Source of the DNA: Shinella granuli
GTDB lineage: Bacteria > Pseudomonadota > Alphaproteobacteria > Rhizobiales > Rhizobiaceae
DNA length: 45,350 bases
Assembly: GCF_004341885.1 (NCBI RefSeq)
Contig: NZ_SLVX01000028.1
Coordinates: forward strand, 1 to 45,350
Reading direction: 5' to 3'
Shown here: one piece after another, positions 18,534 through 36,853 of the stretch
Position numbering within the stretch: the first letter of the stretch is position 1
How the letters are laid out: each line of letters opens with the position of its first letter
The notes under the pieces: generated by a model
Database searches by the model: none
The model's input: the letters and a program-made list of their open reading frames with translations, nothing else
What the model was told of the DNA's origin: nothing
Translations under genes and position numbers: made by a program

Positions 18534-19436
18534 ATGGTCAAGGACCGGTATCCAATCATGTCTCTTTCTGCTGCGGCCAGTGCCGGCTTCGTTGCAGGCC
18601 ACTTTCCGGTTTCACCGTGCGACGTTGGCGGCGAGGAAACCGGCACCTACCAAACACCCCCATCTTTCATCCACTATGTGGGCACGCCTGACTGGGAAAA
18701 TCAAGCCTCTGGTTGTGTTCTTCTGCATGGTGGAAGTGGTGACTGGCGGCATTTTTGCATTAATTTGAAGCCTTTGTCCGCGCATATTCCAATAGTAGCA
18801 CCTGATCTGCCCGGCTTTGGTCTGTCGGGAGCGGCCAGTGGCGAGGATCTTGCGGCCATCGTCGATCCGCTCGCTGCATTTTTGAGGTCAGTACCCTGGC
18901 GTGACATAACTCTTGTCGGTTTTTCCTTCGGCGCGCTCGCCGCCGCCGCTGCTGCCGTTAAGCGTCCACCCTCCCGGCTGCTGCTAATAAGTCCTGCCGG
19001 GTTCGGCGCGCATACAGCGGAAATGGCATCTGCGCGCGAAGCTGCGGCTCAAGCCGCAAAACTCGAAGGTACGCGCGCGGGACTGGCAGTCAACTTGAAG
19101 CGGACAATGCTCCGCCGCGACTATTCCTTGGGAAGCGAACACTTGCTGGACACGATGGAAGAGATGCTGCGCTCGACGCGAGCGAAGGTCCGCCGGTTCT
19201 CGCGCAGTGAACTAATCCTCGATCGCCTGCGGATGCTCGATTGTCCAGTGCGGGTGCTCTTCGGTGAGGCCGACCCTTATCACGCCTCCGCTCTTGACCA
19301 TCGATATGCCGGGATCGCCGCCGCCTGTTCTGGCGCCGAGATTACGACTGTCGCGGATGCGGCGCATTGGCTGATGTTCGATCGCCCGGACGCTTTTGAA
19401 GAAACCTTGCTGGAATTCGCTCGAAGGGATGTGTAA
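18534..19436 (+). CDS. Alpha/beta hydrolase
   Basis: A 300-residue alpha/beta-hydrolase-fold protein. The oxyanion-hole motif 'VLLHGGSGDW' is at about 62-71, the nucleophile elbow 'GFSFGA' puts the catalytic Ser at 131, and the acid and base are Asp247 ('FGEADPYH') and His278 ('DAAHWLMF'). The fold family includes C-C hydrolases of meta-cleavage products, esterases and lactonases. As the first gene of the operon it could open an ester, lactone or diketone substrate, but the reaction cannot be assigned. AAGGGAGG precedes the ATG at 18534, which decides the start. The MaoC gene follows after 5 bases. Confidence 0.85.
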   Translation: MVKDRYPIMSLSAAASAGFVAGHFPVSPCDVGGEETGTYQTPPSFIHYVGTPDWENQASGCVLLHGGSGDWRHFCINLKPLSAHIPIVAPDLPGFGLSGAASGEDLAAIVDPLAAFLRSVPWRDITLVGFSFGALAAAAAAVKRPPSRLLLISPAGFGAHTAEMASAREAAAQAAKLEGTRAGLAVNLKRTMLRRDYSLGSEHLLDTMEEMLRSTRAKVRRFSRSELILDRLRMLDCPVRVLFGEADPYHASALDHRYAGIAAACSGAEITTVADAAHWLMFDRPDAFEETLLEFARRDV

Positions 19437-19441
19437 CGGCG

Positions 19442-20299
19442 ATGATCGACTACGATCGACTTAAATCGCGGGTCTTTGCACCTGTGGTGCAGGAATACTC
19501 GCGACGGGATTCTATGATGTACGGACTCGGCCTCAACCTCGGAGCCGATCCGCTTGATGCGTATTCACTGCAGTATGTGGCAGCCGATCCGCCTCAAGCC
19601 GAGCCAATGATGGCGATGACGTTGGCGCGGCTGGGACCATGGATGCGTGAGCCGGATGTCGGTATCGATTACCGGCGCATCGTTGTGGGGGAACTTGCTC
19701 TGCGGTTGCACGCGCCACTGCCATGTGAAGGTCGGGTCAGGGGTGATCACCGTGTTATCCGCATCACCGACAAGGGCGAGGGCCGCGGCGCTCTCGTCAC
19801 TGTGCTGCGCGAGCTGCGCAATGACGAAACTGGACAGTTGCTGGCAGAATTCGAGCAGGTCACCTTTTGTCGCGGCGATGGTGGCTTCGCGAAGGATGGC
19901 AGACACGATCCTTCCGCCGCGCCGGCCGGTGGCTTTGCCTGGGAGGCGGGGATGCCCGCTGATTTTGTTTTAGACCTGCCGACCTCGCCTCAGCAGGCGC
20001 TGATCTACCGCCTGTCCGGCGACATGAACCCCCTGCATTCTGACCCGCAAGTTGCGCGGCGAGCCGGGTTCGATAGGCCGATTCTCCACGGACTTGCGAC
20101 GATGGGAATGGCGGGCCACGCAATCGCACGAGTGCTCGGCAAACCCCTCACGGCAATCCGTGGCCGCTTGTCCGCACCTGTTTACCCGGGGGAGCATCTT
20201 CGGATCGAAGGATCGGAATCGAGGGGCGAAGGGGGATTCCGCATAGTGGGCAGCGGAGGCCGCGAAATTCTTTCCAACGGCGGATTTAAATCCACATAA
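19442..20299 (+). CDS. MaoC-like (R)-enoyl-CoA hydratase, two-domain type
   Basis: A 285-residue double hot-dog protein. The C-terminal half carries the hydratase-2 motif 'YRLSGDMNPLHSDPQVARRA' with the catalytic pair Asp194 and His199, followed by 'GFDRPILHGLATMGMAGHA'. The N-terminal half is the degenerate hot-dog of the 2-enoyl-CoA hydratase 2 family seen in MFE-2-type peroxisomal and actinobacterial steroid hydratases. It should add water to a trans-2-enoyl-CoA. It is tightly linked to the hydrolase gene. Together with the SDR and the thiolase-like protein downstream it supplies the hydration step of a beta-oxidation-like route. Confidence 0.87.
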   Translation: MIDYDRLKSRVFAPVVQEYSRRDSMMYGLGLNLGADPLDAYSLQYVAADPPQAEPMMAMTLARLGPWMREPDVGIDYRRIVVGELALRLHAPLPCEGRVRGDHRVIRITDKGEGRGALVTVLRELRNDETGQLLAEFEQVTFCRGDGGFAKDGRHDPSAAPAGGFAWEAGMPADFVLDLPTSPQQALIYRLSGDMNPLHSDPQVARRAGFDRPILHGLATMGMAGHAIARVLGKPLTAIRGRLSAPVYPGEHLRIEGSESRGEGGFRIVGSGGREILSNGGFKST

Positions 20300-20304
20300 T
20301 GGAT
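20290..20304 (+). promoter_or_regulatory. Putative IclR operator, site 2
   Basis: ATCCACATAATGGAT: the most symmetric of the three sites (ATCCA/TGGAT arms, 5-bp centre). It starts inside the last codons of the MaoC gene and its last base is the first T of the TTGACA of the next promoter, so an occupied site would block the -35 element. Confidence 0.6.
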
Positions 20305-20332
20305 TGACAGGCGCCTTATTGGCCCATATTAC
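20304..20332 (+). promoter_or_regulatory. Sigma-70-like promoter for the acyl-CoA dehydrogenase operon
   Basis: TTGACA (20304-20309), a 17-bp spacer and TATTAC (20327-20332, four of six matches to TATAAT). It lies about 37 bases before the ATG at 20369. Two copies of the putative IclR operator flank it, one overlapping the -35 and one just after the expected start site, a layout typical of a repressed promoter. Confidence 0.55.
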
Positions 20333-20342
20333 TGCTGACGAA

Positions 20343-20357: not shown

Positions 20358-20368
20358 ATTGTGACTAG

Positions 20369-21541
20369 ATGAATTTCTCTTTTACGGACGAGCAGAACCT
20401 TTTCGCGGAATCGGTCCGCAACTTCGCGCTCAGGAACCTCAAGGACGGCGCGCTTGAGCGAGCCCATCTCGAAGAGTTTCCGCGCGAAATGGCGCGAATG
20501 TTCTACGAGCAGGGCCTGATGGGCATTACGATGCTTGAGGCTGATGGCGGCCAGGGCGGCACGCTGATGGATGCGGTCATCGCGATCGAGCAGATTGCGC
20601 TGGTCTGCCCGCGTAGTGCCGACATCATTCAGGAAGGCAATTTCGGTGCGGTTCGTACCCTGGCGCAATATGCCACTCCGGATCAGAAGGAACGGTTCTT
20701 GAAGCCGGTGTTGGAAGGCCGCGAGATCATTGCGGTCGGCATGACGGAACCTGACGCCGGCTCGGCGACTACCGATCTGAAGACGACCGCGACGCCGGAT
20801 GGCGAGGGTTTTCGCATCAAGGGATCAAAGGTGTTCCCCAATCCTCATGCGGACTTCTATCTTGTCTATGTACGTTTCGGACCTGGCGTCGGCGGCATTG
20901 GATCCGTGATGATCCGCCGTGACGCCCCCGGCTTTTCAATGGGCAAGACGTCGCAGTTCATGTCCGGTGCCGCTTGGGCTCCATTGTTCTTCGACAATGT
21001 CTACGTCGCGCCGGAAGACGTGCTGCTTCCTGCCGGTGGGTTTAAAAAGCAGATTTCCGGCTTCAACGCCGAGCGTATCGGCAACGCGGCTCGCTCTCTT
21101 GCTTACGGGCGCTATTGCTTCAACGAGGCGCGGCGCTACGCGACGGAACGCAGCCAGTTCGGTCGTGCCCTCTGCGAGTTCCAGGGGCTGCAATGGAAGT
21201 TCGCCGACATGAAGGTGGCGATCGAGGCGGCTCAGTTGTTGCTCTACCGTGCTGCAAGCAATGCCGATGATGGTCTGCCTTCTTCGGATGAAACGACCAT
21301 GGCCAAGCTGATGTGCAATCAGGTGGGCTTTAATGCAGCGCATGAGGCGATCCAGATCATGGGTGGTCTCGGTTATTCCCGAGAGGCTCTGATCGAATAC
21401 TGCTTCCGCCGCTCGCGCGGATGGATGATTGCCGGTGGTTCGCTTGAGATGCTGCGCAACCGTATGGCGGAATCCATTTTCGAGCGCCGCTTCCCGCAGC
21501 GCCCGCCTCGGACAGAACCCAAGACGGAGGCGGCGCAGTGA
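20369..21541 (+). CDS. Acyl-CoA dehydrogenase
   Basis: A 390-residue FAD-dependent acyl-CoA dehydrogenase. Visible are 'IIAVGMTEPDAGSATTDLKT' (FAD/substrate loop), 'RSQFGRALCEFQGLQWKFAD', 'AAHEAIQIMGGLGYSRE' and 'RNRMAESIF'. The usual C-terminal catalytic Glu (in YEGTSE) is absent: the spot reads 'IAGGSLEMLRN'. A glutamate at 235 ('FNAERIGNAARS') lies where isovaleryl-CoA and long-chain acyl-CoA dehydrogenases keep their base, so it probably takes over; such enzymes favour branched or bulky acyl groups. Electrons would pass to ETF, encoded 12 kb downstream. It overlaps the next gene by 4 bases. Confidence 0.88.
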   Translation: MNFSFTDEQNLFAESVRNFALRNLKDGALERAHLEEFPREMARMFYEQGLMGITMLEADGGQGGTLMDAVIAIEQIALVCPRSADIIQEGNFGAVRTLAQYATPDQKERFLKPVLEGREIIAVGMTEPDAGSATTDLKTTATPDGEGFRIKGSKVFPNPHADFYLVYVRFGPGVGGIGSVMIRRDAPGFSMGKTSQFMSGAAWAPLFFDNVYVAPEDVLLPAGGFKKQISGFNAERIGNAARSLAYGRYCFNEARRYATERSQFGRALCEFQGLQWKFADMKVAIEAAQLLLYRAASNADDGLPSSDETTMAKLMCNQVGFNAAHEAIQIMGGLGYSREALIEYCFRRSRGWMIAGGSLEMLRNRMAESIFERRFPQRPPRTEPKTEAAQ

Positions 21542-22335
21542 ACGTGGTGGCCCCTTCTTCGGTCGAGGTGCTGCTGTCATCCAAGGGTGATGGTATTGTC
21601 GAAGTGCGCCTCAACCGTCCCGACAAGCTCAATGCGCTCACCGATGACATGTACGCTGTCCTGACTGATCTGTTTGGTCGCCTCCATGAAGATGCGAGCG
21701 TGCGGGCGGTTATCCTGACCGGTGAGGGGAGGGGTTTCTGTTCCGGTTCGGATATCGGCGGGATGCTGAAGACAAGCGGTCCCGCCTCGCGGTTCCGACT
21801 GCAGCGCCGTCACGCCGCCATCCGCGCAATTTACGGCTGCGAGAAGCCCGTGATCGCGGCCGTGCGCGGTCCAGTCGCCGGGATCGGGTTTTCTGTGGCT
21901 ATGGCGTGCGATTTTATCGTGGCGTCCAATACGGCCTATTTCCAGCAGGCATTCCGCAATATCGCTCTTATCCCCGATGGCGGTTCAATCTTCTTCCTTG
22001 GCCAACGGCTCGGGATAGGTCGGGCAAAGGATCTGGTGATGTCCGCCCGCAAGCTCACCGCCGCGGAGGCTAATGACTGGGGACTGGTTTCGCGCCTTGT
22101 CGCCGATAGCGATCTTGAGAGGACCTCGCTCGAACTCGCGGAAGATCTCGCGCGGGCGCCCACCTACATGCTTGGGCTTTCGAAAAAGATGTTCGCCGCG
22201 GCCTGCGCCCCATCCTTGGAGACCGTCCTGGAGATCGAGAGCTATGCAGCAAGCGTCGCGCGTTCGTCCGCCGATCACAAGGAGGGGGTGACGGCGTTCC
22301 GCGAGAAGAGAAAGCCGAATTTTACTGGGGAATAG
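21538..22335 (+). CDS. Enoyl-CoA hydratase/isomerase family protein
   Basis: A 265-residue crotonase-fold protein starting with GTG overlapping the TGA of the acyl-CoA dehydrogenase gene. The oxyanion-hole loops are 'GFCSGSDIGGML' and 'PVAGIGFSVAMACDFIVAS'. In the active-site loop, 'AFRNIALIPDGGSIFFLGQR', the hydratase Glu pair is not complete: there is Ala-Leu-Ile-Pro-Asp, as in PaaG-type isomerases that use the Asp. It may therefore be a delta-isomerase rather than a second hydratase beside MaoC. It is translationally coupled to its neighbour. Confidence 0.85.
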   Translation: MNVVAPSSVEVLLSSKGDGIVEVRLNRPDKLNALTDDMYAVLTDLFGRLHEDASVRAVILTGEGRGFCSGSDIGGMLKTSGPASRFRLQRRHAAIRAIYGCEKPVIAAVRGPVAGIGFSVAMACDFIVASNTAYFQQAFRNIALIPDGGSIFFLGQRLGIGRAKDLVMSARKLTAAEANDWGLVSRLVADSDLERTSLELAEDLARAPTYMLGLSKKMFAAACAPSLETVLEIESYAASVARSSADHKEGVTAFREKRKPNFTGE

Positions 22336-22359: not shown

Positions 22360-23343
22360 ATGGCATTTCTGGGCAAATTGGGTGGTGCGGCCTGCCTTTC
22401 AGTGTTCATTTTTACAGGTGGTGCTTCCGCGCAGGATACTGCAGTGTGGCCGGAACGTGAGATCGTATTCATCGTTCCCTACGCTGCGGGCGGCCCGACC
22501 GATATCCTTGCACGCCTTGTTGGACAGAAACTGCAGGAGCAGTTCGGCAAGAGCGTCATCATAGAAAACAAGCCGGGTGGCAATGGTTCCATCGGTGCGG
22601 TTGCAGCCGCTCGTGCCGATGCTGACGGCTACACCATATATCTCGGTGGCATATCTACAATGTCTGTAGCCCCGGCGTTGAGTGCCGATCTACCCTACGA
22701 TCCAAATAGCGATTTTACGCCAGTATCACTGCTCTCGCGGCAGTCCATTTTGCTGATGGCGCCGCCGGATTTTCCGGTGAAAACGCTCGCGGAGTATATC
22801 GCCGCTGCCAAGGCGGATCCGGGCGGTGTCAGTTATGCGACATCCGGCAATGGCACGTCGGGCCATATGGCCGCGGAACTGTTCCAGCTCGCGGCCGGTG
22901 TCAAGTTGAATCACATTCCGTACAAGGGCTCGTCGCCTGCACTGAATGATCTAATTGGCGGCCAGGTCAACTCGATGTTCGGCACGATGCTTGCAGCGGT
23001 GCCCAACGTTCGTTCCGGTGCGATCAAAGGTATCGCTGTCAGCGGCGAAACCCGCTCTGCGGCACTGCCGGACGTACCGACATTCGCTGAACAGGGATTG
23101 AGCGACTACGAGCCGGGATCCTGGAATGGCATCTATGTGCCGGACGGAACGCCGCCGGAAGTGGTCGACAAGCTGAATGCCGCGATCGCTGTAGCCCTCA
23201 AGTCCACGGATTTGGCCGAAAAACTGGCGGCCGATGGCTCGGTGCCGGCCCATTCCACGCCGGCGGAACTGGGAGAACTTATGCGTGCCGAACAGGCCAA
23301 ATGGAAAGAAGTGGTCGAAAAGGCCGGGGTAACAATACAATGA
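22360..23343 (+). CDS. tctC: TTT-system (Bug family) substrate-binding protein 1
   Basis: A 327-residue periplasmic binding protein with a signal peptide ending ASA-Q ('FIFTGGASAQD'). The Bug/TctC hallmarks are present: 'IVPYAAGGPTDILARLVGQK', 'IIENKPGGNGSIGA', 'ADADGYTIYLGG', 'HIPYKGSSPALNDLIGGQV' and 'LPDVPTFAEQG'. It would hand a carboxylate to the TctAB membrane subunits encoded 7 kb downstream in the same operon. GGGAGGAG lies upstream of the ATG. A second, different binding protein occurs two genes later, so the transporter may use two receptors. Confidence 0.9.
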   Translation: MAFLGKLGGAACLSVFIFTGGASAQDTAVWPEREIVFIVPYAAGGPTDILARLVGQKLQEQFGKSVIIENKPGGNGSIGAVAAARADADGYTIYLGGISTMSVAPALSADLPYDPNSDFTPVSLLSRQSILLMAPPDFPVKTLAEYIAAAKADPGGVSYATSGNGTSGHMAAELFQLAAGVKLNHIPYKGSSPALNDLIGGQVNSMFGTMLAAVPNVRSGAIKGIAVSGETRSAALPDVPTFAEQGLSDYEPGSWNGIYVPDGTPPEVVDKLNAAIAVALKSTDLAEKLAADGSVPAHSTPAELGELMRAEQAKWKEVVEKAGVTIQ

Positions 23344-25427
23344 ATATGATGAGTGCAACGGGGCGTCCGTCCCTGGACGACTGCATGTTTCGCCCGCGCG
23401 CGGTGGCTTTGATCGGCGCGTCCGCCGATCCGGCCAAGAACAATGCGCGGCCGCAACGATACCTGACTGAAGCCGGCTTCACGGGGAAGATTGTCCCCAT
23501 TAATCCGACGCGCAATGAGATCATGGGACTGCCATGCTATCCGGATCTCGCGTCGGTGCCGTTCGATATTGACCATGCTTTCATCATGGTGCCGGCCGCA
23601 GCAATCGAGGATGTGATCGACCAATGCGGCCGCAAGGGCGTGCCGGTCGTCACAATCTTTACCGCCGGCTTCGCAGAGTTGGGTGAGAAGGGACTCGCCC
23701 TGCAACAGCGCATCGTTGAACGCGCTCGTGCAGCCAATGTCCGCATTCTCGGACCGAACTGCATTGGTCTCATCAATGTGCAAGGTAACCTCCCGCTGAC
23801 GGCAAATGCTGCCGTGCAGGAGGAAAAACTGCGACCTGGTCCGGTTTCGGTCGTGTCACAGAGCGGTAGCATGCTCGGCAGCATGCTGACCCGGGCGGCG
23901 GCACGCGGTATCGGCTTTTCCAAGATGATTTCCATCGGCAATGAGGCTGATCTTTCGGTTGGCGAGGTGGTCTCGCTTCTGGCTCGGGATGACGACACCA
24001 AGGTCATTCTGCTGTTTCTGGAAACCATCCGCGACGGTGAGGCCTTGGCCAAAGCCGCGCGCGAGGCCTTCTCCGCAGGCAAGGCCGTCATTGCCTACAA
24101 GCTCGGCCGCTCCGCGCTGGGCCGGCGCGTCGCGGCTTCCCATACCGGAGCCATGGTCGGGGCGGACGAACTGGCGCAAGCCTTTTTCCGCGCCAACGGC
24201 ATTCTTCGCGTCGAGACGCTCGAGGCATTGATCGAACTGCCTCGCCTTATCGAAGGGCACCATCCCCCCAAGGGCCGGCGCGTCGGTATGATGACCGCCA
24301 CTGGCGGTGCTGCGGCGATGATCGTGGACCGACTGGGTGTTTACGGCGACACCGTTCCCGAGCCCCCGGAGGACTTCCGCAACCGGCTCGCGAGCGAGGG
24401 GATCGAGATCTCGGACTCTCCGCTGATTGATCTGCCGATGGGATCGAGCGGCGGTGGACGCTATACGCGCATTCTTTCCGAACTCATGGCATCGGAACAC
24501 TGCGACGCGGTTGTGTCGGTGATGGGGTCGTCGGCGCGGTCGAACCCGAAGATGGTGTGTGAACGCGTACTTGGCGCCCGCCTCGGCGCCAAACCGCTTG
24601 CCGTGTTCCTGGCGCCCCAAGCTGATGAAGGATTGAGCATTCTGCACGAGGCCGGCATCGCCGGTTTCCGGACGCCGGAAAGCTGCGCCGATGCGATCCA
24701 TGCTTATTTGAACTGGCACGAGCCTTCGATCCGGGTTGCAGTGGATGACGAGGAGCTTGTCGAGGCTCGCCGCGTTGCTGCGGAGACAATTGATTGGGAC
24801 GAACGCAAGGCCACTGCGTTGTTCGCGCTGCTTGGCGTACCTGTTGCTGAGAGCCGGATAGTCCCAGCTGAAGGGGGAGCGGTTGAGCCCGTTTCCGGCC
24901 TTGCGGCGGTCAAATGTCTCTCGCCTGACATCCTCCACAAATCCGATGCGGGGCTCGTGGCGCTTGGCGTCACGCCCGATGCGGTGCCGGAGGTGGCCGG
25001 GGAAATCCTGCGTAAAGCCCGTGCTGCCTTCCCCAAGGCCCGCTTGGAGGGGGTACTGGTCCAGAAGATGGAGAAAGGTTTAGCCGAGGTCATCCTCGGC
25101 TACCGCAGGGATCCGGAGGTCGGCCCGGTGGTCGTGCTGGGTATCGGTGGGGTCACTGCGGAACTGCGGCCGAGCATCTCGGTGCGGGCCGCACCGATTG
25201 ATCCGGCTGCTGCGCAAGAGATGATCGCCGAAATTCCGGAACTTCGAAAGCTCGCCGGCTTCCGGAACCTGCCTAAGGGAGATCTTTCGGCGCTTGCCGA
25301 GACGATAGTCCGCTTTTCGAGGCTGGCCTTGGTGGGAGGAGATATCACCGAGGCAGAAATCAATCCGTTGCTCATCAAGGAGGAGAACTATGGTGTCGTC
25401 GCAGTCGATGGGCTTGTCGCCCGCTAA
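23340..25427 (+). CDS. NDP-forming acyl-CoA synthetase (acetate-CoA ligase family)
   Basis: A 695-residue fused ligase. Order: CoA-binding Rossmann domain ('AVALIGASADPAKNNARPQR'), succinyl-CoA-ligase-like domain ('RILGPNCIGLINVQGNLPLT', 'VVSQSGSMLGSMLTRAA'), the phosphohistidine loop 'ASHTGAMVG' with His268, then a C-terminal ATP-grasp domain ('VKCLSPDILHKSDAGLVAL') with the second conserved His, ending 'ITEAEINPLLI'. Enzymes of this kind form acyl-CoA from acid, CoA and ATP with release of ADP and phosphate. Here it most likely activates the imported carboxylate. The ATG at 23340 overlaps the tctC stop (ATGA). Confidence 0.88.
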   Translation: MNMMSATGRPSLDDCMFRPRAVALIGASADPAKNNARPQRYLTEAGFTGKIVPINPTRNEIMGLPCYPDLASVPFDIDHAFIMVPAAAIEDVIDQCGRKGVPVVTIFTAGFAELGEKGLALQQRIVERARAANVRILGPNCIGLINVQGNLPLTANAAVQEEKLRPGPVSVVSQSGSMLGSMLTRAAARGIGFSKMISIGNEADLSVGEVVSLLARDDDTKVILLFLETIRDGEALAKAAREAFSAGKAVIAYKLGRSALGRRVAASHTGAMVGADELAQAFFRANGILRVETLEALIELPRLIEGHHPPKGRRVGMMTATGGAAAMIVDRLGVYGDTVPEPPEDFRNRLASEGIEISDSPLIDLPMGSSGGGRYTRILSELMASEHCDAVVSVMGSSARSNPKMVCERVLGARLGAKPLAVFLAPQADEGLSILHEAGIAGFRTPESCADAIHAYLNWHEPSIRVAVDDEELVEARRVAAETIDWDERKATALFALLGVPVAESRIVPAEGGAVEPVSGLAAVKCLSPDILHKSDAGLVALGVTPDAVPEVAGEILRKARAAFPKARLEGVLVQKMEKGLAEVILGYRRDPEVGPVVVLGIGGVTAELRPSISVRAAPIDPAAAQEMIAEIPELRKLAGFRNLPKGDLSALAETIVRFSRLALVGGDITEAEINPLLIKEENYGVVAVDGLVAR

Positions 25428-26415
25428 AACAACAATCCGCCGCAGAGCGGTCCTCGTGGCGGGGATCGCGTTGAGCCTTGGCCTTTTTGCCGTGACGGGA
25501 CCGGCTCTGGCGCAGGACTATCCGGATCGTCCGATCCAGGTGATCGTGCCCTTCCCGCCGGGCGGGGGGGCGGACACCGTTGCACGGGCCGTCTCGGACC
25601 TCATGGGACGCGAGCTGGGCCAGCCGCTGATCGTCGAGAACCGCGGCGGCGCCAACGGCGCAATCGGTACGCAGATGGCGGCCGCGGCCGAAGCCGATGG
25701 CTATACGCTCTACGTCGGCAATCTTGGAACGATGGCGATCACGCCCAATCTCGATCCGAATGTGCACTACGATCCGGTCAAGGATTTCGTCGCAATCACT
25801 CAGATCAATGCATCCTCGACGGTACTGGTCGTGAATCCGAAGCTGGGTATCAAGACGTTCCAGGAACTCATCGCCTATGCGAAGGCCAATCCGGGCAAGC
25901 TGAACTATGCTTCAAGTTCGCCAGCTACGATTCTGCCCATGGAAATGCTGAAGCAGATGGCCGGCATCGATATGGTCCACATTCCCTACAAGGGCTCCGG
26001 CCCGGCGATGACGGACATCCTTGCCGGACATGTGGATATTATGTTCGGCGGCGCGCTGGCGACGGTGCCCCACGTCAAGAGCGGTGCTCTGGTCGGCCTG
26101 GCCGTTGCCGGTTCGTCGCGAAGCAAGGTGCTTCCCGACCTGCCGACCGTCGCCGAGAGCGGCTATCCGGATTTCGCCGCAGATTCCTGGAACGGAATTT
26201 TCGCCCCCGCGAACACATCGCCCGAGATCGTCGCCAAGCTCAACAAGGCTGCAGTCGTCGCACTGGAAAATCCGGAAGTCGCGGCCCGCATGGAAAACGA
26301 AGGCGCAATAGTGATCGCGAATTCGGCCGAGGACTTCGCGACCTATGTCGCTGCCGAACACGCGAAGTGGAAAGCTGTGATCGCCGCGCTTCCTAGCGGC
26401 ATCAAGTTGGATTGA
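25390..26415 (+). CDS. tctC: TTT-system (Bug family) substrate-binding protein 2
   Basis: A 341-residue Bug/TctC protein with an arginine-rich, Tat-like or long Sec signal ('TIRRRAVLVAGIALSLGLFA', cleavage after ALA-Q). Signature stretches are 'VIVPFPPGGGADTVARAVSD', 'IVENRGGANGAIGTQMAAAA', 'HIPYKGSGPAMTDILAGHVD' and 'LPDLPTVAESGYPDF'. Its start lies 38 bases inside the end of the ligase gene and follows a near-perfect AAGGAGGA, which decides the start. It is clearly diverged from the first binding protein, so it is not a recent duplicate. Confidence 0.9.
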   Translation: MVSSQSMGLSPAKTTIRRRAVLVAGIALSLGLFAVTGPALAQDYPDRPIQVIVPFPPGGGADTVARAVSDLMGRELGQPLIVENRGGANGAIGTQMAAAAEADGYTLYVGNLGTMAITPNLDPNVHYDPVKDFVAITQINASSTVLVVNPKLGIKTFQELIAYAKANPGKLNYASSSPATILPMEMLKQMAGIDMVHIPYKGSGPAMTDILAGHVDIMFGGALATVPHVKSGALVGLAVAGSSRSKVLPDLPTVAESGYPDFAADSWNGIFAPANTSPEIVAKLNKAAVVALENPEVAARMENEGAIVIANSAEDFATYVAAEHAKWKAVIAALPSGIKLD

Positions 26416-26429: not shown

Positions 26430-27827
26430 ATGGCGTTGCCAGTTGAAACAGCAAGCACGGGCTCGGCCGATAGCCTGACCGGCATTCTGGCACGCCATGT
26501 TGCCAACATGAATTTTACCGCTCTGGATGGGGTGGTGATTCACGCCTTCCGGCGGGCGATGGTCGATTATCTGGCTTGCGCCTTCGCCGGATCCGAAATG
26601 CCCGTTACCCAAGCCCTACGGGCTTGGGCTGAAGCCGAAGGCGGTGCATCGGTGGCCTCCGTGATAGGCGCTCAGTTGCGCCTTCCGGCCTCGCAGGCCG
26701 CCTTCGTAAACGGGGCGGCCGCCCACGCACTCGATTTCGATGACGGCTACACCCGCGGCTCCGCTCATCCAGGTGGAGTGATTTTTTCTGCCGCCATTGC
26801 GGCAGCGGAAAAGCGTGGAGCCGGGGCTGAAGATTTCATCGCAGGTGTCGTTGCGGGCTACGATGTGATGCTGCGGATTGCCGGAACCATGCACCCTGCT
26901 TCGGCGAAGCAAGGTTGGCACAATACCGCGGTTGCCGGTGTGTTTGGCGCTGCGGCCGCCGCAGGTCGTGTCTATGGGCTGCCGGCGCAGGAATTGCAGG
27001 ATGCATTCGGGCTTGCGGCCAGCTTCGCCGGCGGCATCCGGCAATATCTGTCGGATGGAGCTGAGGTTAAGCGACTGCATCCGGGCAAGGCTGCGCGCGA
27101 CGGCATTGTCTGTGCTGAGCTGGCCGCCGCCGGCATCACCGGCGCCATAGAGTGCCTCGAAGGTGCCGACGGGCTGTTCAGGGCAATGGTCGACGGGCGC
27201 GTCGACCGGCGGAGTCTCCTGGCCGATTTGGGGCAGAGTTTCTTGATCACTGAAGCCTATTTCAAGCCGTATCCGTGCTGCCGGCATTTCCACGCCGCCA
27301 TTGATGCGACCCTTGCCCTGCGCGACGAAGAGCGGCTGGAACCCGACCAGATCACGGCGATCGACATCGGGCTGTATCAGGTCGGTGTCCATGGGCATGA
27401 TCATCGTACGGCTAACAACCTCCTCGAAGCGCAGATGAGTGCTCCTTGTGCAGTCGTTGGAGCCTTGATCCAGGGTCGTCTGAACGCTGCCGAATTTGAG
27501 CCCTCGTCATTTGCCGGAGCGGAGCCGCAGCGCCTCCTGAACGTGACGCGCGTGCACGTCGATGAGCGCTGCGAGGAGATTTATCCGAAAGTACGCAGCG
27601 GTGTCGTCACGCTGGAACTGACTGATGGCCGGCGTCTCGAACGGCGCATTGTCGAGCCACGGGGCGAGACGGCGGATCCGCTGACGGACGACGATCTTAG
27701 CCGCAAGTTCATGGACAACGTTCCGGGCCATATCGGCGAGGAAAACGCCAGCAGGCTTTTGGAGCAGATCTGGACGATGGATGGTCAGAGCGATCCTTCG
27801 GCGTTCTTTCCGTTGCTTGCCATATGA
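26430..27827 (+). CDS. MmgE/PrpD family protein
   Basis: A 465-residue member of the MmgE/PrpD family, which contains 2-methylcitrate dehydratase, cis-aconitate decarboxylase and iminodisuccinate epimerase. Family marks are 'LDFDDGYTRGSAHPGGVIFS', 'GYDVMLRIAGTMHPASAKQG', 'WHNTAVAGVFGAAAAAGRVY', 'AEVKRLHPGKAARDGI' and 'FKPYPCCRHFHAAIDA'. The reaction is probably a dehydration, decarboxylation or isomerisation of a polycarboxylate, but members are too varied to choose. GAGGAGGAT precedes the ATG at 26430. The next gene overlaps by 4 bases. Confidence 0.87.
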   Translation: MALPVETASTGSADSLTGILARHVANMNFTALDGVVIHAFRRAMVDYLACAFAGSEMPVTQALRAWAEAEGGASVASVIGAQLRLPASQAAFVNGAAAHALDFDDGYTRGSAHPGGVIFSAAIAAAEKRGAGAEDFIAGVVAGYDVMLRIAGTMHPASAKQGWHNTAVAGVFGAAAAAGRVYGLPAQELQDAFGLAASFAGGIRQYLSDGAEVKRLHPGKAARDGIVCAELAAAGITGAIECLEGADGLFRAMVDGRVDRRSLLADLGQSFLITEAYFKPYPCCRHFHAAIDATLALRDEERLEPDQITAIDIGLYQVGVHGHDHRTANNLLEAQMSAPCAVVGALIQGRLNAAEFEPSSFAGAEPQRLLNVTRVHVDERCEEIYPKVRSGVVTLELTDGRRLERRIVEPRGETADPLTDDDLSRKFMDNVPGHIGEENASRLLEQIWTMDGQSDPSAFFPLLAI

Positions 27828-28228
27828 AGGATGAAACGCAGTTGACAGAGAACAGTCTTACACAGTCCCCGCATGGGCGCTTCCTGGAACACGCCGCGCG
27901 CGGCGAATTGGCCTTTCAAAGGGACAGCACCGGGAGAGCCTTCTTTCCGCCGCGTCTGATTGCGCCGAAGGAGGGGACCGATCCCACATGGGACGTCTCG
28001 GTTGGAACGGGCGCGATCCATTCTTTGACCTTGGTGCGCCATAAGGGGGAGGCGCCTCTTGCGCTTGCGATGATCGACCTCGACGAGGGGTTTCGCATCA
28101 TGAGCCATGTGGATGCCGCCGACCCCGAAAACCTGCGTATTGGCGATCGGGTGAAGGTTGCGTTTCGCCCATTGGCGGACGGGCAGCCGCCGATGCCGGT
28201 CTTCGCACTTACAGAGGAACGCGCATGA
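27824..28228 (+). CDS. DUF35 OB-fold protein, zinc ribbon degenerate
   Basis: A 134-residue DUF35 protein. The OB-fold part is visible in 'VGTGAIHSLTLVRH', 'PLALAMIDLDEGFRIMSHVD' and 'RIGDRVKVAFRPLADGQ'. Typical members begin with a rubredoxin-like CxxC ribbon ('+C..CG...+PPR..CP'); here the matching stretch is 'FQRDSTGRAFFPPRLIAP' with no cysteine, so zinc binding is lost. It overlaps both the MmgE gene upstream and the thiolase-like gene downstream by 4 bases. DUF35 proteins work as obligate partners of thiolase-like enzymes, as in ChsH2-DUF35/Ltp2 of steroid side-chain cleavage, so a complex with the next gene product is likely. Confidence 0.82.
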   Translation: MKDETQLTENSLTQSPHGRFLEHAARGELAFQRDSTGRAFFPPRLIAPKEGTDPTWDVSVGTGAIHSLTLVRHKGEAPLALAMIDLDEGFRIMSHVDAADPENLRIGDRVKVAFRPLADGQPPMPVFALTEERA

Positions 28229-29391: not shown

Positions 29392-30294
29392 ATGCTTAAA
29401 GGCAAGGTTGCCGTCGTCACCGGAGCGGGACGCGGCATAGGAAGAGACATCGCCTTGGCCATGGCGCGCGAGGGCGCAAAAGTCGTGGTTAATGATCTTG
29501 GCGTACAGTTGGATGGCAGCGACGGCGCCACCAATCCGGCGGATGACGTCGTTGCGGAAATCCGTGCGGCAGGCGGAGAAGCCGTTCCGAATTTCGATAG
29601 CGTGGCTGCCTGGGACAGCGCGCAGCGTGTGGTCGGAACGGCCATCGATGCGTTTGGCCGGATTGACTGCGTCGTCAACAATGCCGGCATCCTGCGCGAT
29701 GTAATGTTCCACAAGATGCCGCCGGAGGACTGGGATCTCGTGATCCAGGTCATGTTGAATGGCGCCTTCTATATGAGCCGTGCCGCAATCACGCATTTCC
29801 GGGCGCAGGAAAGCGGTTCCTTCGTTCATATGATCTCCGCCTCCGGTCTGGCTGGAAATTATGGGCAGGCTGCTTATGCCGCCGCCAAAGCCGGCATGGT
29901 GGGCCTGTCGAAGGCGATCGCCATCGACGCGCAGAAATACAATGTGCGCTCCAATTGCGTTGCTCCATCGGCCTGGACGCGAATGACGAGTTCGATTCCG
30001 GAAACCGAGGCCAATATGGCCCGCATCGCGCAGCGCAAGCAGGTCACCCCCGACAAGAACGCCCCTTTGGTGGCCTTCCTGGCCAGCGATCTGGCGAATG
30101 ACGTCAATGGCCAGATCTTCGCAACTCGCATGAACGAGATCTTCCTCATGGGGCAATCACGTCCTATCCGGAGCATCCACCGCAGCGAGGGATGGACGCC
30201 CGCCACCGTCGCCAACCATGCAATCCCTGCGTTGAAGGCGAGTTTCTATCCCATAGACCGGAACCAGGACGTGTTCTGCTGGGATCCGGTGTGA
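29392..30294 (+). CDS. Short-chain dehydrogenase/reductase (3-hydroxyacyl-CoA dehydrogenase-like)
   Basis: A 300-residue SDR. The nucleotide motif is 'VVTGAGRGIGRDIA' (residues 8-21), then 'NNAGIL' and the active site Tyr162/Lys166 in 'GQAAYAAAKAGMVGLSKAIA' preceded by Ser149 or Ser151. The insertion after 'VVVNDLG' ('VQLDGSDGATNPADDVV') is typical of the SDR domain of peroxisomal multifunctional enzyme 2 and its bacterial relatives, which oxidise (R)-3-hydroxyacyl-CoA. That fits with the MaoC hydratase in the operon. The C-terminal tail of about 50 residues ('PIRSIHRSEGWTPATVANHA') is longer than in minimal SDRs. GGAAGGAA precedes the ATG. Confidence 0.87.
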   Translation: MLKGKVAVVTGAGRGIGRDIALAMAREGAKVVVNDLGVQLDGSDGATNPADDVVAEIRAAGGEAVPNFDSVAAWDSAQRVVGTAIDAFGRIDCVVNNAGILRDVMFHKMPPEDWDLVIQVMLNGAFYMSRAAITHFRAQESGSFVHMISASGLAGNYGQAAYAAAKAGMVGLSKAIAIDAQKYNVRSNCVAPSAWTRMTSSIPETEANMARIAQRKQVTPDKNAPLVAFLASDLANDVNGQIFATRMNEIFLMGQSRPIRSIHRSEGWTPATVANHAIPALKASFYPIDRNQDVFCWDPV

Positions 30295-30325: not shown

Positions 30326-30781
30326 ATGAAACCAAAAAGAGGAAACGTGGACGTCGAAAGCGGCGTCTTCTTTACGCTCAGTGGCTTGATCACCATGCTA
30401 TTGTCGATGAACTACTCGTTTGGGACAGCGGCGCGAATGGGGCCGGGTTTTTTCCCGATCGTTCTGAGCGGACTGCTGACATTCCTCGGGATAGCCATCC
30501 TTGTTTCTGGCCTACGCACGCGAAAGCCGGTCGTGCCGTCTGCCTTCGATCTGAAAAGTGTGCTGATCGTCTGCACCGCCATCGTGCTGTTCGGGCTGCT
30601 ATTGATGCGGGCAGGACTGCTGATCACCGTGCCGCTGACCGTCGTCGTCGCTTCGTTTGCCCAGCATGAGATGAAGTGGAAGCAAACCCTGGTCATCGCG
30701 GTGGCGCTGACCGTGTTCACCTGGCTGGTGTTTATCGCGGGCCTTGACCTGCGTATTCCGTTGCTGCCGAGGTTTGTCTGA
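30326..30781 (+). CDS. tctB: TTT-system small membrane subunit TctB
   Basis: A 151-residue TctB protein with four hydrophobic segments. It opens with 'VESGVFFTLSGLITMLLSMN' and 'ARMGPGFFPIVLSGLLTFLG', the conserved 'G.A..MGPGFFP......L..LG' of the family. GGGAGGAAAA precedes the ATG. TctB is the poorly conserved small subunit needed with TctA for sodium- or proton-coupled carboxylate uptake across the inner membrane. tctA follows after one base. Confidence 0.9.
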   Translation: MKPKRGNVDVESGVFFTLSGLITMLLSMNYSFGTAARMGPGFFPIVLSGLLTFLGIAILVSGLRTRKPVVPSAFDLKSVLIVCTAIVLFGLLLMRAGLLITVPLTVVVASFAQHEMKWKQTLVIAVALTVFTWLVFIAGLDLRIPLLPRFV

Positions 30782-33474: not shown

Positions 33475-34224
33475 ATGAAAATACTAGTCCCAGTCAAGCG
33501 AGTTGTTGACTACAACGTCAAGATCCGCGTCAAGACGGACGGGACCGGCGTGGAGCTGGCCAACGTTAAGATGTCGATGAACCCGTTCGATGAAATCGCC
33601 GTCGAAGAGGCCCTGCGCCTCAAGGAAGCCGGCAAGGCCGAGGAAGTGGTCGTCGTCTCGATCGGACCGGCCAAGGCCGAGGAAACGCTGCGCACCGCGC
33701 TCGCCATGGGCGCCGACCGCGCCGTCCTGGTCGAGACCGACGCTGCCGTCGAGCCGCTCGCCGTCGCCAAGTTGCTGAAGGGCGTGATCGACGCCGAACA
33801 GCCGGGCCTCGTCATCACCGGCAAGCAGGCGATCGACGACGATTCGAACCAGACCGGCCAGATGCTCGCCGCCCTGCTCGGCTGGGGCCAGGCGACGTTC
33901 GCCTCGAAGGTGGATCTTGGCGCGGACAAGGCGACCGTCACCCGCGAAGTCGACGGCGGCCTGCAGACCATCGACGTCAAGCTCCCGGCCGTCGTCACCA
34001 CCGACCTTCGCCTGAACGAGCCGCGCTATGCTTCGCTACCCAACATCATGAAGGCGAAGAAGAAGCCGCTCGACAAGAAGACCCCGGCCGACTTCGGCGT
34101 CGACACGACGGCGCGCCTCAAGGTGCTGAAGACCGAGGAGCCTGGCGGCCGCAAGGCGGGCGTCAAGGTCAAGTCTGTCGCCGAATTGGTCGACAAGCTG
34201 AAGAACGAAGCCGGCGTGCTGTAA
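33475..34224 (+). CDS. etfB: Electron transfer flavoprotein beta subunit
   Basis: A 249-residue EtfB of normal length. It begins '[20 protein letters not shown]' and carries the AMP-binding/family signatures '[20 protein letters not shown]', '[11 protein letters not shown]', '[20 protein letters not shown]' and the recognition loop '[20 protein letters not shown]'. EtfB with EtfA accepts electrons from acyl-CoA dehydrogenases. Codon use here is distinctly more GC-biased than in the operon upstream, as in rhizobial chromosomal genes. It is followed by etfA after 26 bases. Confidence 0.95.
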
Positions 34225-34250
34225 TCGGACCGGGATAGGAGACTAGAGAT

Positions 34251-35183
34251 ATGGCCATTCTTCTTCTGGCAGAACACGACAACGCAACCCTGTCCGACCA
34301 GACCGCCAAGGCGCTGACGGCCGCCACCAAGATCGGCGGCGACATTCACGTGCTGGTTGCCGGCTCCGGTGCCAAGGCCGCCGCCGACGCCGCCGCCAAG
34401 CTTTCGGGCGTTTCCAAGGTTCTGCTCGCCGACGATGCGAGCCTTGCCAACAACCTCGCCGAACCGCTCGCCGCCCTGATCATCGGCCTCGCCGACGGCT
34501 ATGACACGATCATCGCGCCCGCGACCTCCTCGGCCAAGAACGTCATGCCGCGCGTTGCGGCCCTGCTCGACGTGATGCAGGTCTCGGAGATTACCGAGGT
34601 CGTCTCGGCCGACACCTTCAAGCGCCCGCTCTATGCCGGCAACGCCATCCAGACGGTGCAGTCCACCGACGCCAAGAAGGTTATCACGGTGCGCACCGCG
34701 TCCTTTTCCCCCGCCTCCCAAGGCACGCCTGCTGCCGTTGAGTTAATCTCAACGGCAGCCCTTTCTTCACATCTTTCGAGGTTTGTTTGTGACGCCCTGT
34801 CCACCTCGGATCGTCCGGACTTGACCTCGGCCAAGATCATCATCTCGGGGGGGCGTGCGCTCGGCTCGTCGGAGAAGTTCAACGCTGTCATCCTGCCCGT
34901 CGCCGACAAGCTCGGTGCCGCCGTCGGTGCGAGCCGCGCTGCCGTCGACGCGGGCTACGCCCCGAACGACTGGCAGGTCGGCCAGACCGGCAAGGTGGTC
35001 GCGCCGCAGCTCTACATCGCGGCCGGCATTTCCGGCGCCATTCAGCATCTCGCCGGCATGAAGGATAGCAAGGTCATCGTCGCGATCAACAAGGACGAAG
35101 AGGCACCGATCTTCCAGGTCGCCGACTACGGCCTGGTCGCCGACCTGTTCGAAGCCCTGCCGGAACTGGAAAAGGCGCTCTGA
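34251..35183 (+). CDS. etfA: Electron transfer flavoprotein alpha subunit
   Basis: A 310-residue EtfA. The C-terminal FAD-binding domain is well conserved: 'TSAKIIISGGRALGSSEKFN', 'LGAAVGASRAAVDAGYAPND', 'QVGQTGKVVAPQLYIAAGIS', 'KDEEAPIFQVADYGLVADLF'. The linker between the two domains ('SFSPASQGTPAAVELISTAA', 'LSSHLSRFVCDALSTSDRPD', about residues 151-190) is unusual: base composition drops and the DNA contains a perfect 12-bp inverted repeat. The frame is intact, so the protein should fold, but this stretch looks like a replaced or drifting tract. It acts as electron shuttle with EtfB. Confidence 0.93.
   Translation: MAILLLAEHDNATLSDQTAKALTAATKIGGDIHVLVAGSGAKAAADAAAKLSGVSKVLLADDASLANNLAEPLAALIIGLADGYDTIIAPATSSAKNVMPRVAALLDVMQVSEITEVVSADTFKRPLYAGNAIQTVQSTDAKKVITVRTASFSPASQGTPAAVELISTAALSSHLSRFVCDALSTSDRPDLTSAKIIISGGRALGSSEKFNAVILPVADKLGAAVGASRAAVDAGYAPNDWQVGQTGKVVAPQLYIAAGISGAIQHLAGMKDSKVIVAINKDEEAPIFQVADYGLVADLFEALPELEKAL
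34731..34759. repeat. Perfect 12-bp inverted repeat inside etfA
   Basis: GCTGCCGTTGAG (34731-34742), loop TTAAT, CTCAACGGCAGC (34748-34759), followed by a pyrimidine stretch CCTTTCTTC. It looks like an intrinsic terminator without a clean T-run and lies in the middle of the etfA frame. Confidence 0.75.
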
Positions 35184-35188
35184 TTAGT

Positions 35189-36853
35189 ATGGAGTTGATG
35201 AAGGAACTGCCCGAACGCGAGAGCATGGAATTCGACGTGGTGATCGTCGGTGCCGGGCCTGCCGGTCTGTCGGCGGCGATCCGCCTGAAACAGGTCAATC
35301 CGGATCTGACCGTCGTCGTGCTGGAGAAGGGCTCGGAAGTCGGCGCGCACATCCTGTCCGGCGCCGTGGTCGATCCGATCGGCGTCGACAAGCTCTTGCC
35401 CGGCTGGCGCGAAGAGGCCGAACATCCGTTCAAGACCAAGGTCAAGGACGATCAGTTCCTCTTCCTCGGGCCGGCCGGGTCCATCCGTTTGCCCAACATG
35501 TTCATGCCGCCGCTGATGAACAATCACGGCAATTACATCGTCTCGCTCGGCAATGTCTGTCGCTGGCTCGCCACCCATGCCGAGGCGCTGGGTGTCGAGA
35601 TCTATCCGGGCTTTGCCGCCACCGAGCTGCTCTACAACGATGAGGGCGCGGTGATCGGCGTCGCCACCGGCGACATGGGCATCGAGAAGAACGGCGAGCC
35701 GGGCCCGGCCTATACGCGCGGCATGGAACTGCTCGGCAAGTACGTGCTGATCGGCGAGGGCGTACGCGGTTCGCTCGCCAAGCAGCTGATCGCCAAATTC
35801 GACCTGCAGAAGGATCGCGAGCCACAAAAATTCGGCATCGGTCTCAAGGAACTCTGGCAGGTCAAGCCGGAGCACCACAAGCCGGGTCTGGTACAGCACT
35901 CCTTCGGCTGGCCGCTCGACATGAAGACCGGCGGAGGCTCCTTCCTCTACCATCTCGAAGACAATCTCGTCGCGGTCGGTTTCGTCGTCCACCTGAACTA
36001 CAAGGACCCCTATCTCTATCCGTTCGAGGAGTTCCAGCGCTTCAAGACCCATCCGACGATCGCCCCGACCTTCGAAGGGGCCAAGCGCCTGTCCTATGGC
36101 GCCCGCGCCATCACCGAAGGCGGCTACCAGTCGGTGCCGAAGCTCTCCTTCCCGGGCGGCGCGCTGATCGGCTGTTCCGCCGGTCTCGTCAACGTGCCGC
36201 GCATCAAGGGCAGCCACAATGCCGTGCTGTCGGGCATGCTGGCGGCCGACAAGATCGCCGAAGCCATCGCGAGCGGCCGCGCCAATGACGAGCCGGTCGA
36301 GATCGAGAACGAATGGCGCGCAACCGATATCGGCACGGACCTGAGGCGCGTCAGAAACGTGAAGCCGCTGTGGTCGAAGCTCGGCACCGCGCTCGGCGTC
36401 GGTCTGGGCGGTCTCGACATGTGGACCAATACCCTGTTCGGCTTCTCCTTCTTCGGCACGCTGAAGCACGGCAAGACCGACGCGGCCTCGCTTGAACCGG
36501 CCGCCAAGCACAAGCCGATCGCCTATCCCAAGCCCGATGGCGTGCTCACCTTCGACCGCCTGTCGTCGGTGTTCCTGTCGAACACCAATCATGAGGAAGA
36601 CCAGCCGGTTCACCTCCAGGTCAAGGACATGGATCTGCAGAAGCGTTCGGAACTCGGCGTCTTCGCCGGTCCGTCGACCCGCTATTGCCCGGCCGGCGTC
36701 TATGAATGGGTGGAGAAGGATGGCGAACAGGTCTACGTGATCAACGCGCAGAACTGCGTCCACTGCAAGACCTGCGACATCAAGGACCCGAACCAGAACA
36801 TCAACTGGGTCCCGCCGCAGGGCGCGGAAGGTCCGGTTTATCCGAACATGTGA
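35189..36853 (+). CDS. etfQO: Electron transfer flavoprotein:ubiquinone oxidoreductase
   Basis: A 554-residue ETF-QO, full length. N-terminal FAD motif 'VVIVGAGPAGLSAAIRLKQ' (about 18-36); 'GGGSFLYHLEDNLVAVGFVV' and 'FPGGALIGCSAGLVNVPRIK' mark the second FAD segment; the [4Fe-4S] cluster ligands are Cys500 ('YCPAGVYEW') and Cys523, 526 and 529 ('CVHCKTCDIKDP'). It is a peripheral inner-membrane protein that oxidises reduced ETF and reduces ubiquinone. It starts 5 bases after etfA. Having all three genes together next to an acyl-CoA dehydrogenase operon gives the island its own electron outlet. Confidence 0.95.
   Translation: MELMKELPERESMEFDVVIVGAGPAGLSAAIRLKQVNPDLTVVVLEKGSEVGAHILSGAVVDPIGVDKLLPGWREEAEHPFKTKVKDDQFLFLGPAGSIRLPNMFMPPLMNNHGNYIVSLGNVCRWLATHAEALGVEIYPGFAATELLYNDEGAVIGVATGDMGIEKNGEPGPAYTRGMELLGKYVLIGEGVRGSLAKQLIAKFDLQKDREPQKFGIGLKELWQVKPEHHKPGLVQHSFGWPLDMKTGGGSFLYHLEDNLVAVGFVVHLNYKDPYLYPFEEFQRFKTHPTIAPTFEGAKRLSYGARAITEGGYQSVPKLSFPGGALIGCSAGLVNVPRIKGSHNAVLSGMLAADKIAEAIASGRANDEPVEIENEWRATDIGTDLRRVRNVKPLWSKLGTALGVGLGGLDMWTNTLFGFSFFGTLKHGKTDAASLEPAAKHKPIAYPKPDGVLTFDRLSSVFLSNTNHEEDQPVHLQVKDMDLQKRSELGVFAGPSTRYCPAGVYEWVEKDGEQVYVINAQNCVHCKTCDIKDPNQNINWVPPQGAEGPVYPNM

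What the first reader, a model, noticed from the sequence alone, without database searches (positions are those of the whole stretch)
18534..36853. Self-contained carboxylate degradation module with its own transporter and quinone electron outlet
One block encodes uptake (two TctC, TctA, TctB, AbrB-like protein), CoA activation (NDP-forming ligase), desaturation, hydration or isomerisation, an MmgE/PrpD step, a thiolase-like/DUF35 pair, an SDR, an alpha/beta hydrolase, and then EtfBA plus ETF-QO. I do not know a described pathway with this gene set. A branched or alicyclic acid is plausible given the acyl-CoA dehydrogenase type and the aldolase-like pair. This is the best candidate in the window for an undescribed system.
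Basis: partly seen in the sequence, partly recalled or inferred. Interest (0 to 1): 0.72.

Follow-up and report, generated by a model that had tools for sequence, protein, structure and literature searches.

The report
Unassigned carboxylate catabolism operon in Shinella
A bacterium of the genus Shinella carries a real, intact set of genes for importing and breaking down some unidentified di- or tricarboxylic acid; its parts belong to known enzyme families, but the combination has no assigned substrate, and its likely carbon-carbon-cleaving pair belongs to a group whose small partner protein lacks the usual zinc site.

Summary
The gene block is real: all 17 listed genes match the named families. 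The contig belongs to the genus Shinella. The borders were wrong. In Shinella lacus the same 14 genes run from a divergent IclR gene directly into LysR-TcuA-TcuB (tricarballylate dehydrogenase unit), with no EtfBA/ETF-QO between them. S. lacus has one ETF-QO, on another contig; the window's genome has three. So the quinone outlet is an accessory cassette, and the tricarballylate unit is the missed neighbour. ACAD and ligase form a recurring adjacent pair (9 of 13 sampled genomes), with an MmgE match in the fetched stretch in 7 of 13. The ACAD has its likely catalytic Glu at an unusual place (24 of 24 relatives). The thiolase-like protein has Gly instead of the nucleophilic Cys (80 of 80); among characterised proteins it folds closest to steroid retro-aldolases. 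Its DUF35 partner lacks the four-Cys zinc motif, as do 63 of 80 relatives. Best reading: CoA-dependent breakdown of a substituted succinate- or tricarballylate-type acid ending in aldol cleavage. Substrate unproven. New variant of a known kind; moderate interest.

The parts
17616..18455 (-). IclR-family regulator, divergent, likely controls the operon
   Evidence: PF01614/PF09339; 86-87% in S. lacus at the same place
18534..19436 (+). alpha/beta hydrolase (thioesterase, lactonase or C-C hydrolase; undecided)
   Evidence: PF12697, PF00561; no NCBIfam over cut-off
19442..20299 (+). MaoC / hydratase-2 type enoyl-CoA hydratase
   Evidence: PF01575, PF22622; nearest solved are MaoC/MFE-2 hydratases
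20369..21541 (+). acyl-CoA dehydrogenase with Glu235 at the helix-G position and Gly-Gly at the usual EGT site
   Evidence: PF00441/PF02771/PF02770; E235 and G356/G357 in 24 of 24 relatives
21538..22335 (+). enoyl-CoA hydratase/isomerase
   Evidence: PF00378; PaaG-like but below cut-off
22360..23343 (+). TctC substrate-binding protein 1
   Evidence: PF03401
23301..25427 (+). NDP-forming acyl-CoA ligase (alpha and beta parts fused); more likely start near 23340 (own judgement)
   Evidence: PF13549, PF13607, PF13380; 87% in S. lacus, at most 41% in the 7 of 296 other family genomes that match
25390..26415 (+). TctC substrate-binding protein 2
   Evidence: PF03401
26412..27827 (+). MmgE/PrpD family isomerase/dehydratase-like enzyme
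   Evidence: PF03972, PF19305; carboxylate-binding residues mostly kept
27824..28228 (+). DUF35 OB-fold partner without the four-Cys zinc motif (no Cys at all)
   Evidence: PF01796
28225..29379 (+). thiolase-superfamily, aldolase-like catalytic subunit (Gly85 for the nucleophilic Cys, Tyr280-Asp-Ala-Phe, His330)
   Evidence: PF22691, NF004811 628 bits vs 421
29392..30294 (+). SDR, MFE-2-like 3-hydroxyacyl-CoA dehydrogenase type
   Evidence: PF00106; best solved match (3R)-hydroxyacyl-CoA dehydrogenase
30326..30781 (+). TctB
   Evidence: PF07331
30744..32291 (+). TctA; more likely start near 30783 (own judgement)
   Evidence: PF01970
32302..33369 (+). AbrB-family (PF05145) membrane protein
33475..36853 (+). 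accessory cassette EtfB-EtfA-ETF-QO (33475-34224, 34251-35183, 35189-36853); not part of the conserved block
36943..37878 (+). LysR regulator of the tricarballylate unit
   Evidence: PF00126/PF03466; 81% in S. lacus next to TcuA; 50% in C. campinensis near tcuAB
37930..39348 (+). TcuA, FAD-dependent tricarballylate dehydrogenase
   Evidence: NF006130 763 bits vs 369, TIGR02485 681 vs 372.55
39367..40527 (+). TcuB, 4Fe-4S tricarballylate utilisation protein
   Evidence: NF011607 645 bits vs 524, TIGR02484 420 vs 246.6

Best explanation
A patchily distributed catabolic operon for a branched di- or tricarboxylate of the substituted-succinate/tricarballylate type. Inferred route: TctABC (two binding proteins) imports the acid; MmgE/PrpD re-sets the stereocentre (or isomerises) on the free acid; the NDP-forming ligase makes the CoA thioester; the acyl-CoA dehydrogenase desaturates it, electrons leaving through ETF and ETF-QO (any copy in the cell); the MaoC hydratase adds water; the DUF35/thiolase-like pair cleaves the 3-hydroxyacyl-CoA by a retro-aldol reaction into acetyl-CoA plus an oxo acid. 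SDR, ECH and the alpha/beta hydrolase serve a second turn or side products. TcuAB handles tricarballylate, as substrate or product, giving cis-aconitate. Shown here: gene families, the conserved block and its borders, active-site residues, absence of the Etf cassette in the sister species. Inferred: every reaction, the order of steps, the substrate class.
For: Block conserved as a unit with LysR-TcuA-TcuB in S. lacus. TcuA/TcuB over curated cut-offs. ACAD-ligase adjacent in 9 of 13 other genomes found by ACAD in order and phylum samples; an MmgE match in the fetched stretch (up to about 20 kb each side) in 7 of 13, Tct genes in 6 of 13. In one of the 13 (G550) ACAD, ligase, TcuA and TcuB follow one another on one strand. 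MmgE keeps five of seven residues named for P. aeruginosa methylsuccinate isomerase (H, H, H, K, K), with E91 to Asp; [quoted passage not shown] The PA7 ACAD next to that MmgE has Glu at the same place as the window's. Thiolase-like subunit: YDAF and Gly85 in 80 of 80; Gly85 aligns with the nucleophilic Cys of two ordinary thiolases from fetched loci; PMC12329534 (passages) says that Gly there rules out thiolysis in Sal. Foldseek: best characterised matches of both subunits are the Sal-Shy and Ltp2-ChsH2 aldolases.
Against: The ACAD-ligase-MmgE set and the thiolase/DUF35 pair mostly live apart: a thiolase-like match of 60% or more in 1 of 13 ACAD genomes (G547); an ACAD of 50% or more in 1 of 79 thiolase loci other than S. 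lacus (Chelativorans); MmgE in 4 of 79. MmgE lacks the isomerase's Tyr148 (Ala, Lys in the pairwise alignment), so it is not that enzyme. In the aldol route the SDR has no obvious step. The tcu link rests on two sister species, 1 of 13 ACAD genomes, one genome found through the ligase (G252) and two plasmids that I opened because they held both; TcuA alone is in 60 of 397 order genomes. No TcuC gene was recognised. The pair has neither Sal's Cys304 nor Ltp2's Tyr344. The model is of low confidence at 83-86 and 327-331, that is at the active site.
Confidence: 0.37

Rival explanations
1. Benzylsuccinate-like beta-oxidation: ligase, ACAD, MaoC/ECH, SDR to a 3-oxoacyl-CoA, then thiolytic cleavage by the DUF35/thiolase-like pair, giving an acyl-CoA plus a succinyl- or tricarballylyl-CoA that TcuAB finishes after CoA removal by the hydrolase.
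For: Gives MaoC+SDR (MFE-2 type) a step; BbsB shares the DAFTI stretch and the HP motif with the window protein; NF053628 BbsB matches at 147 bits though below its 750 cut-off.
Against: Nucleophile-site residue is Gly in 80 of 80 and the BbsB motif HDAF is YDAF here; solved BbsAB ranks below both aldolases in the fold searches.
Confidence: 0.27
2. Three unrelated units side by side, brought together by mobile DNA: a CoA pathway for an unrelated acid, an Etf cassette, and a tricarballylate unit.
For: Etf cassette absent in S. lacus; IS110, IS66 and ISL3 genes flank the region; TcuA mostly occurs without the ACAD (60 of 397 order genomes hold TcuA, 9 the ACAD); the thiolase-like gene is patchy in the genus (one 94% and one 53% match in 20 other genomes, the rest at most 31%).
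Against: IclR-to-TcuB order kept in two species at 62-95% identity; ACAD-ligase-TcuA-TcuB run in G550.
Confidence: 0.27
3. Side-chain degradation of a steroid-like or alicyclic acid.
For: Both subunits of the cleaving pair match the steroid aldolases best among characterised folds.
Against: No ring-cleavage gene among the 33 window proteins scanned with Pfam; TctABC, MmgE and TcuAB point to small polycarboxylates; the DUF35 protein is not fused to a MaoC domain as in Shy.
Confidence: 0.05

Closest known systems
Itaconate/methylsuccinate cluster of Pseudomonas aeruginosa and Cupriavidus necator (ict, ich, ccl, mcd, mmgE; PMC12290011, passages and section 13)
   Same: MmgE/PrpD enzyme paired with an acyl-CoA dehydrogenase that has Glu at the same unusual place; a hydratase; acetyl-CoA-yielding cleavage (for the window inferred)
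   Different: About 29% identity of MmgE and ACAD to the PA7 copies; ligase instead of CoA transferase; no CitE-type lyase recognised but a DUF35/thiolase-like pair; Tyr148 absent
Steroid aldolases Sal-Shy and Ltp2-ChsH2 (PMC12329534, passages)
   Same: DUF35 plus thiolase-fold pair, Tyr-Asp motif, no nucleophilic Cys
   Different: YDAF instead of YDCY or YDHF; Ltp2 Tyr344 aligns with His330; DUF35 has no Cys and is not fused to MaoC; 34% and 32% identity in the structure alignment
Benzylsuccinate beta-oxidation (bbs) operon (gene roles partly recalled)
   Same: ACAD, hydratase, SDR, OB-fold plus thiolase-like pair
   Different: Ligase instead of CoA transferase, MaoC hydratase, no thiolase nucleophile, DUF35 without the four-Cys motif
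Salmonella tricarballylate operon tcuABC (PMC10468695, passages; the regulator TcuR is recalled)
   Same: TcuA and TcuB, with a LysR gene before them; TcuA 79% identical to plasmid copies
   Different: No TcuC recognised; TctABC and an AbrB-family membrane protein lie upstream instead

Membership tests
Tricarballylate dehydrogenase unit (TcuA/TcuB) | Scores over curated cut-offs for TcuA and TcuB | tested here: met
   763/369, 681/372.55 bits; 645/524, 420/246.6 bits
Tricarballylate dehydrogenase unit (TcuA/TcuB) | Converts tricarballylate to cis-aconitate | not testable with these tools
   needs an enzyme assay
Itaconate/methylsuccinate degradation cluster | MmgE catalytic Tyr148 | tested here: not met
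   not Tyr: Ala165 in the multiple alignment (also Ala in S. lacus), Lys in the pairwise alignment
Itaconate/methylsuccinate degradation cluster | Itaconate CoA transferase and citramalyl-CoA lyase genes nearby | tested here: not met
   no such Pfam match among 33 window proteins scanned
3-Sulfinopropionyl-CoA desulfinase | NF042439 cut-off 600 bits | tested here: not met
   258.8 bits
Sal/Ltp2 steroid aldolase | Catalytic Tyr of the YD motif and no nucleophilic Cys | tested here: met
   80 of 80 relatives; Gly85 against Cys of two ordinary thiolases
Sal/Ltp2 steroid aldolase | Second catalytic residue (Cys304 of Sal or Tyr344 of Ltp2) | tested here: not met
   Ala282 and His330 at those places
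Zinc-ribbon DUF35 protein | Cys-x2-Cys ... Cys-x2-Cys zinc site | tested here: not met
   no Cys in the window protein; motif absent in 63 of 80 partners
Benzoylsuccinyl-CoA thiolase BbsAB | NF053628 cut-off 750 bits for BbsB | tested here: not met
   147 bits
Self-contained module with its own Etf/ETF-QO | Etf genes conserved with the block | tested here: not met
   absent in the S. lacus block, one ETF-QO elsewhere there

The most novel reading that the evidence does not exclude
The block is an undescribed CoA route for a substituted succinate- or tricarballylate-type acid, in which carbon-carbon cleavage is done by a widespread clade of zinc-free DUF35/thiolase-fold retro-aldolases that use a Tyr280/His330 pair in place of the residues known from Sal, Ltp2 and thiolases. 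The clade (61 of 81 tree rows, support 100/99) would then be a new catalytic type in many Pseudomonadota catabolic loci.
Probability: 0.25. Interest if true: 0.6.

Novelty: new variant of a known kind. Interest (0 to 1): 0.4.

Why it matters
If right, it gives a substrate class and a testable reaction for a large group of unassigned TctC-rich catabolic loci, ties the NDP-forming ligase/ACAD/MmgE trio to branched dicarboxylates, and defines a group of thiolase-fold enzymes without the thiolase nucleophile whose DUF35 partners lack the zinc motif.

Tried and rejected
Rejected: methylsuccinate/itaconate cluster (no transferase or lyase gene recognised, MmgE Tyr148 missing); sulfinopropionyl-CoA desulfinase (score far under cut-off; the Advenella cluster of PMC5373536, passages, also has two TctC genes but a CoA transferase and a dioxygenase); Etf genes as a fixed part of the module; a terminator between AbrB and EtfB (weak 4-pair stem, folding z -1.18, 23 of 200 shuffles as good, not in the terminator scan). 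Rfam gave no match over its gathering scores. Promoter- and terminator-like sites were near the shuffled level: 7 found against 5.2 +/- 2.5, and 14 against 16.6 +/- 4.5.

Led nowhere: in the plasmid DNA search of the block, no record of 471 covered 80% of it, and in all 20 listed the match was the Etf stretch. The class-wide MmgE search found no relative over its limit in 384 other genomes, although the protein database holds three relatives at 81-82% from metagenomes and one from a Shinella (120 of 857 listed). Literature searches for the gene set (listings only, open-access library) showed me no described pathway with it; that is no proof of absence. A search for DUF35 listed 40 of 278 papers, many about other DUF numbers; beyond passages of PMC12329534 and PMC2954200 I read nothing on zinc-free members, so I do not claim that zinc-free DUF35 proteins are unreported.
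Full report
Setting. The window is one whole contig of 45,350 bases of a 6.6 Mb genome in 97 contigs. IS110, IS66 and ISL3 transposase genes lie at 333-1430, 2663-3529, 15918-17081 and 40914-42569.

Observation. Ligase, MmgE and ACAD are far below all NCBIfam equivalog cut-offs shown. TcuA and TcuB, just outside the given coordinates, are over theirs.

Borders. In S. lacus the block runs IclR | hydrolase, MaoC, ACAD, ECH, TctC, ligase, TctC, MmgE, OB, thiolase-like, SDR, TctB, TctA, AbrB, LysR, TcuA, TcuB, at 62-95% protein identity, and EtfB, EtfA and ETF-QO are missing between AbrB and LysR. S. lacus has a single ETF-QO, on another contig. The window's genome has three; the one on contig 23 comes with EtfBA and is 84% identical in DNA over nearly the whole cassette. 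Etf stretches 82.7-84.4% identical stand in the 20 plasmid records listed of 471. On the other side, G547 has EtfBA and ETF-QO beside a relative of the thiolase/DUF35 genes, and G278 has EtfBA about 5 kb past its ACAD-ligase pair, its one ETF-QO being elsewhere. So Etf genes sit near such operons more than once but are not needed. Of 20 other genomes of the genus one has a 94% thiolase-like match, one a 53% match, the others at most 31% or none.

Co-conservation by ACAD: 8 other genomes of 396 in the order and 5 other of 397 in the phylum, limit E 1e-125. In the stretches fetched around these 13 (some cut by contig ends) the ligase gene is next to the ACAD in 9, further off in 3 and absent in 1; an MmgE match is present in 7; TctA, TctB or TctC in 6; TcuA in 1 (G550, following ACAD and ligase on the same strand); a thiolase-like match of 60% or more, and Etf genes, in 1 (G547). 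A ligase search of 296 other genomes of the family gave 7 with at most 41% identity; among them G252 has TcuAB beside ligase and ACAD. TcuA itself occurs in 60 of 397 order genomes. Two Cupriavidus plasmids also carry TcuAB near ACAD and ligase, but I opened them because they held both.

Only S. lacus has the full block. Chelativorans sp. J32 has ACAD, ligase, TctB, TctA, a hydrolase, OB, thiolase-like, SDR, MaoC and ECH. Among the 79 other loci matches were: OB 77, TctC 42, ECH 30, SDR 28, ACAD 23 (one at 50% or more), ligase 22, MaoC 14, MmgE 4, EtfB 3, TcuA 1, ETF-QO 0; a closer look beside each thiolase-like gene found an OB partner at all 80 loci. Many contigs are short, so these are lower bounds.

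Enzymes. ACAD: Glu235 in the motif N-x-E-R and Gly-Gly at the usual EGT site in 24 of 24 relatives (24 of 26 loci searched passed the 54% and length filter, the other two had no such ACAD). That this is the base position of isovaleryl-CoA dehydrogenase is recalled. The ACAD beside the MmgE in P. aeruginosa PA7 has the same arrangement; I take that pair for the methylsuccinate pair of PMC12290011 (passages and section 13) from its gene surroundings, judged by eye. MmgE, in that paper's numbering: His88, His102, His152, Lys202 and Lys266 kept, Glu91 is Asp, Tyr148 is not Tyr (Ala, Lys).

The cleaving pair. In 80 of 80 relatives the thiolase-like protein has Gly at 84 and 85, Tyr-Asp-Ala-Phe at 280-283, His330 and Pro331. 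Gly85 aligns with the nucleophilic Cys, and His330 with the GHP His, of two ordinary thiolases from fetched loci. Ltp2 has Tyr344 where the window has His330 (my count on the alignment), and BbsB has His-Asp-Ala-Phe where the window has Tyr-Asp-Ala-Phe. PMC12329534 (passages) names Tyr302 and Cys304 in Sal and Tyr294 and Tyr344 in Ltp2 as catalytic and says that Gly at the nucleophile site rules out thiolysis in Sal. The predicted model (mean pLDDT 82, low at 83-86 and 327-331) matches 4u4e (a putative thiolase) first, then the Sal-Shy and Ltp2-ChsH2 aldolases. The DUF35 partner has no Cys; the four-Cys motif is absent in 63 of 80 partners and present in 17 (alignment). Its model (pLDDT 90) matches the DUF35 parts of the same two aldolases first. 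On a tree of 81 thiolase-like rows the window lies in a clade of 61 rows, support 100/99, all without the motif; the whole tree needs at least three changes of state. The root is drawn at the midpoint, so loss rather than gain is inferred. Loci without the motif more often have a TctC gene (40 of 63 against 3 of 17, Fisher p 0.0009), but kinship is not removed from that test.

Mechanism and limits. The reading under Best explanation joins these facts: MmgE and ACAD as in methylsuccinate degradation, a ligase for the transferase, and a DUF35/thiolase-fold retro-aldolase for the lyase, with TcuAB (tricarballylate to cis-aconitate, as in Salmonella; PMC10468695 passages) beside them. A route of this form would turn R-CH(COOH)-CH2-COOH into acetyl-CoA and a 2-oxo acid. 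That is inference. The SDR fits better in a thiolytic route, which I keep as the main rival. The substrate is not determined.

Noticed in passing
window 5161-6504 (-): Histidinol-dehydrogenase family protein (TIGR00069, 417 bits) with no other his gene among the window proteins scanned; could be a paralogue for another alcohol.
   Followed up: no
window 9141-12027 (+): ABC transporter with an NMT1/OpuAC-type binding protein, an ATPase and a permease.
   Followed up: partly
window 12083-13120 (-): LuxR-type (GerE) regulator on its own.
   Followed up: no
window 34731-34759 (+): Perfect 12-base inverted repeat inside etfA.
   Followed up: no
G000:C24:102897-104264 and L141: A second TcuA/TcuB pair in the same genome, 57-58% and 55% identical, at a contig end.
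   Followed up: partly
window 42663-44956 (+): DUF736 and Fic-domain genes at the contig end.
   Followed up: no
L093 and L095 around 10000-12300: Two consecutive thiolase-like genes of the same family in tandem.
   Followed up: no
L144 22599-31561 (Cupriavidus campinensis): PIG-L, class II aldolase and amidohydrolase-2 genes near tcuAB, which recall gallate/protocatechuate meta-cleavage genes (resemblance recalled).
   Followed up: partly
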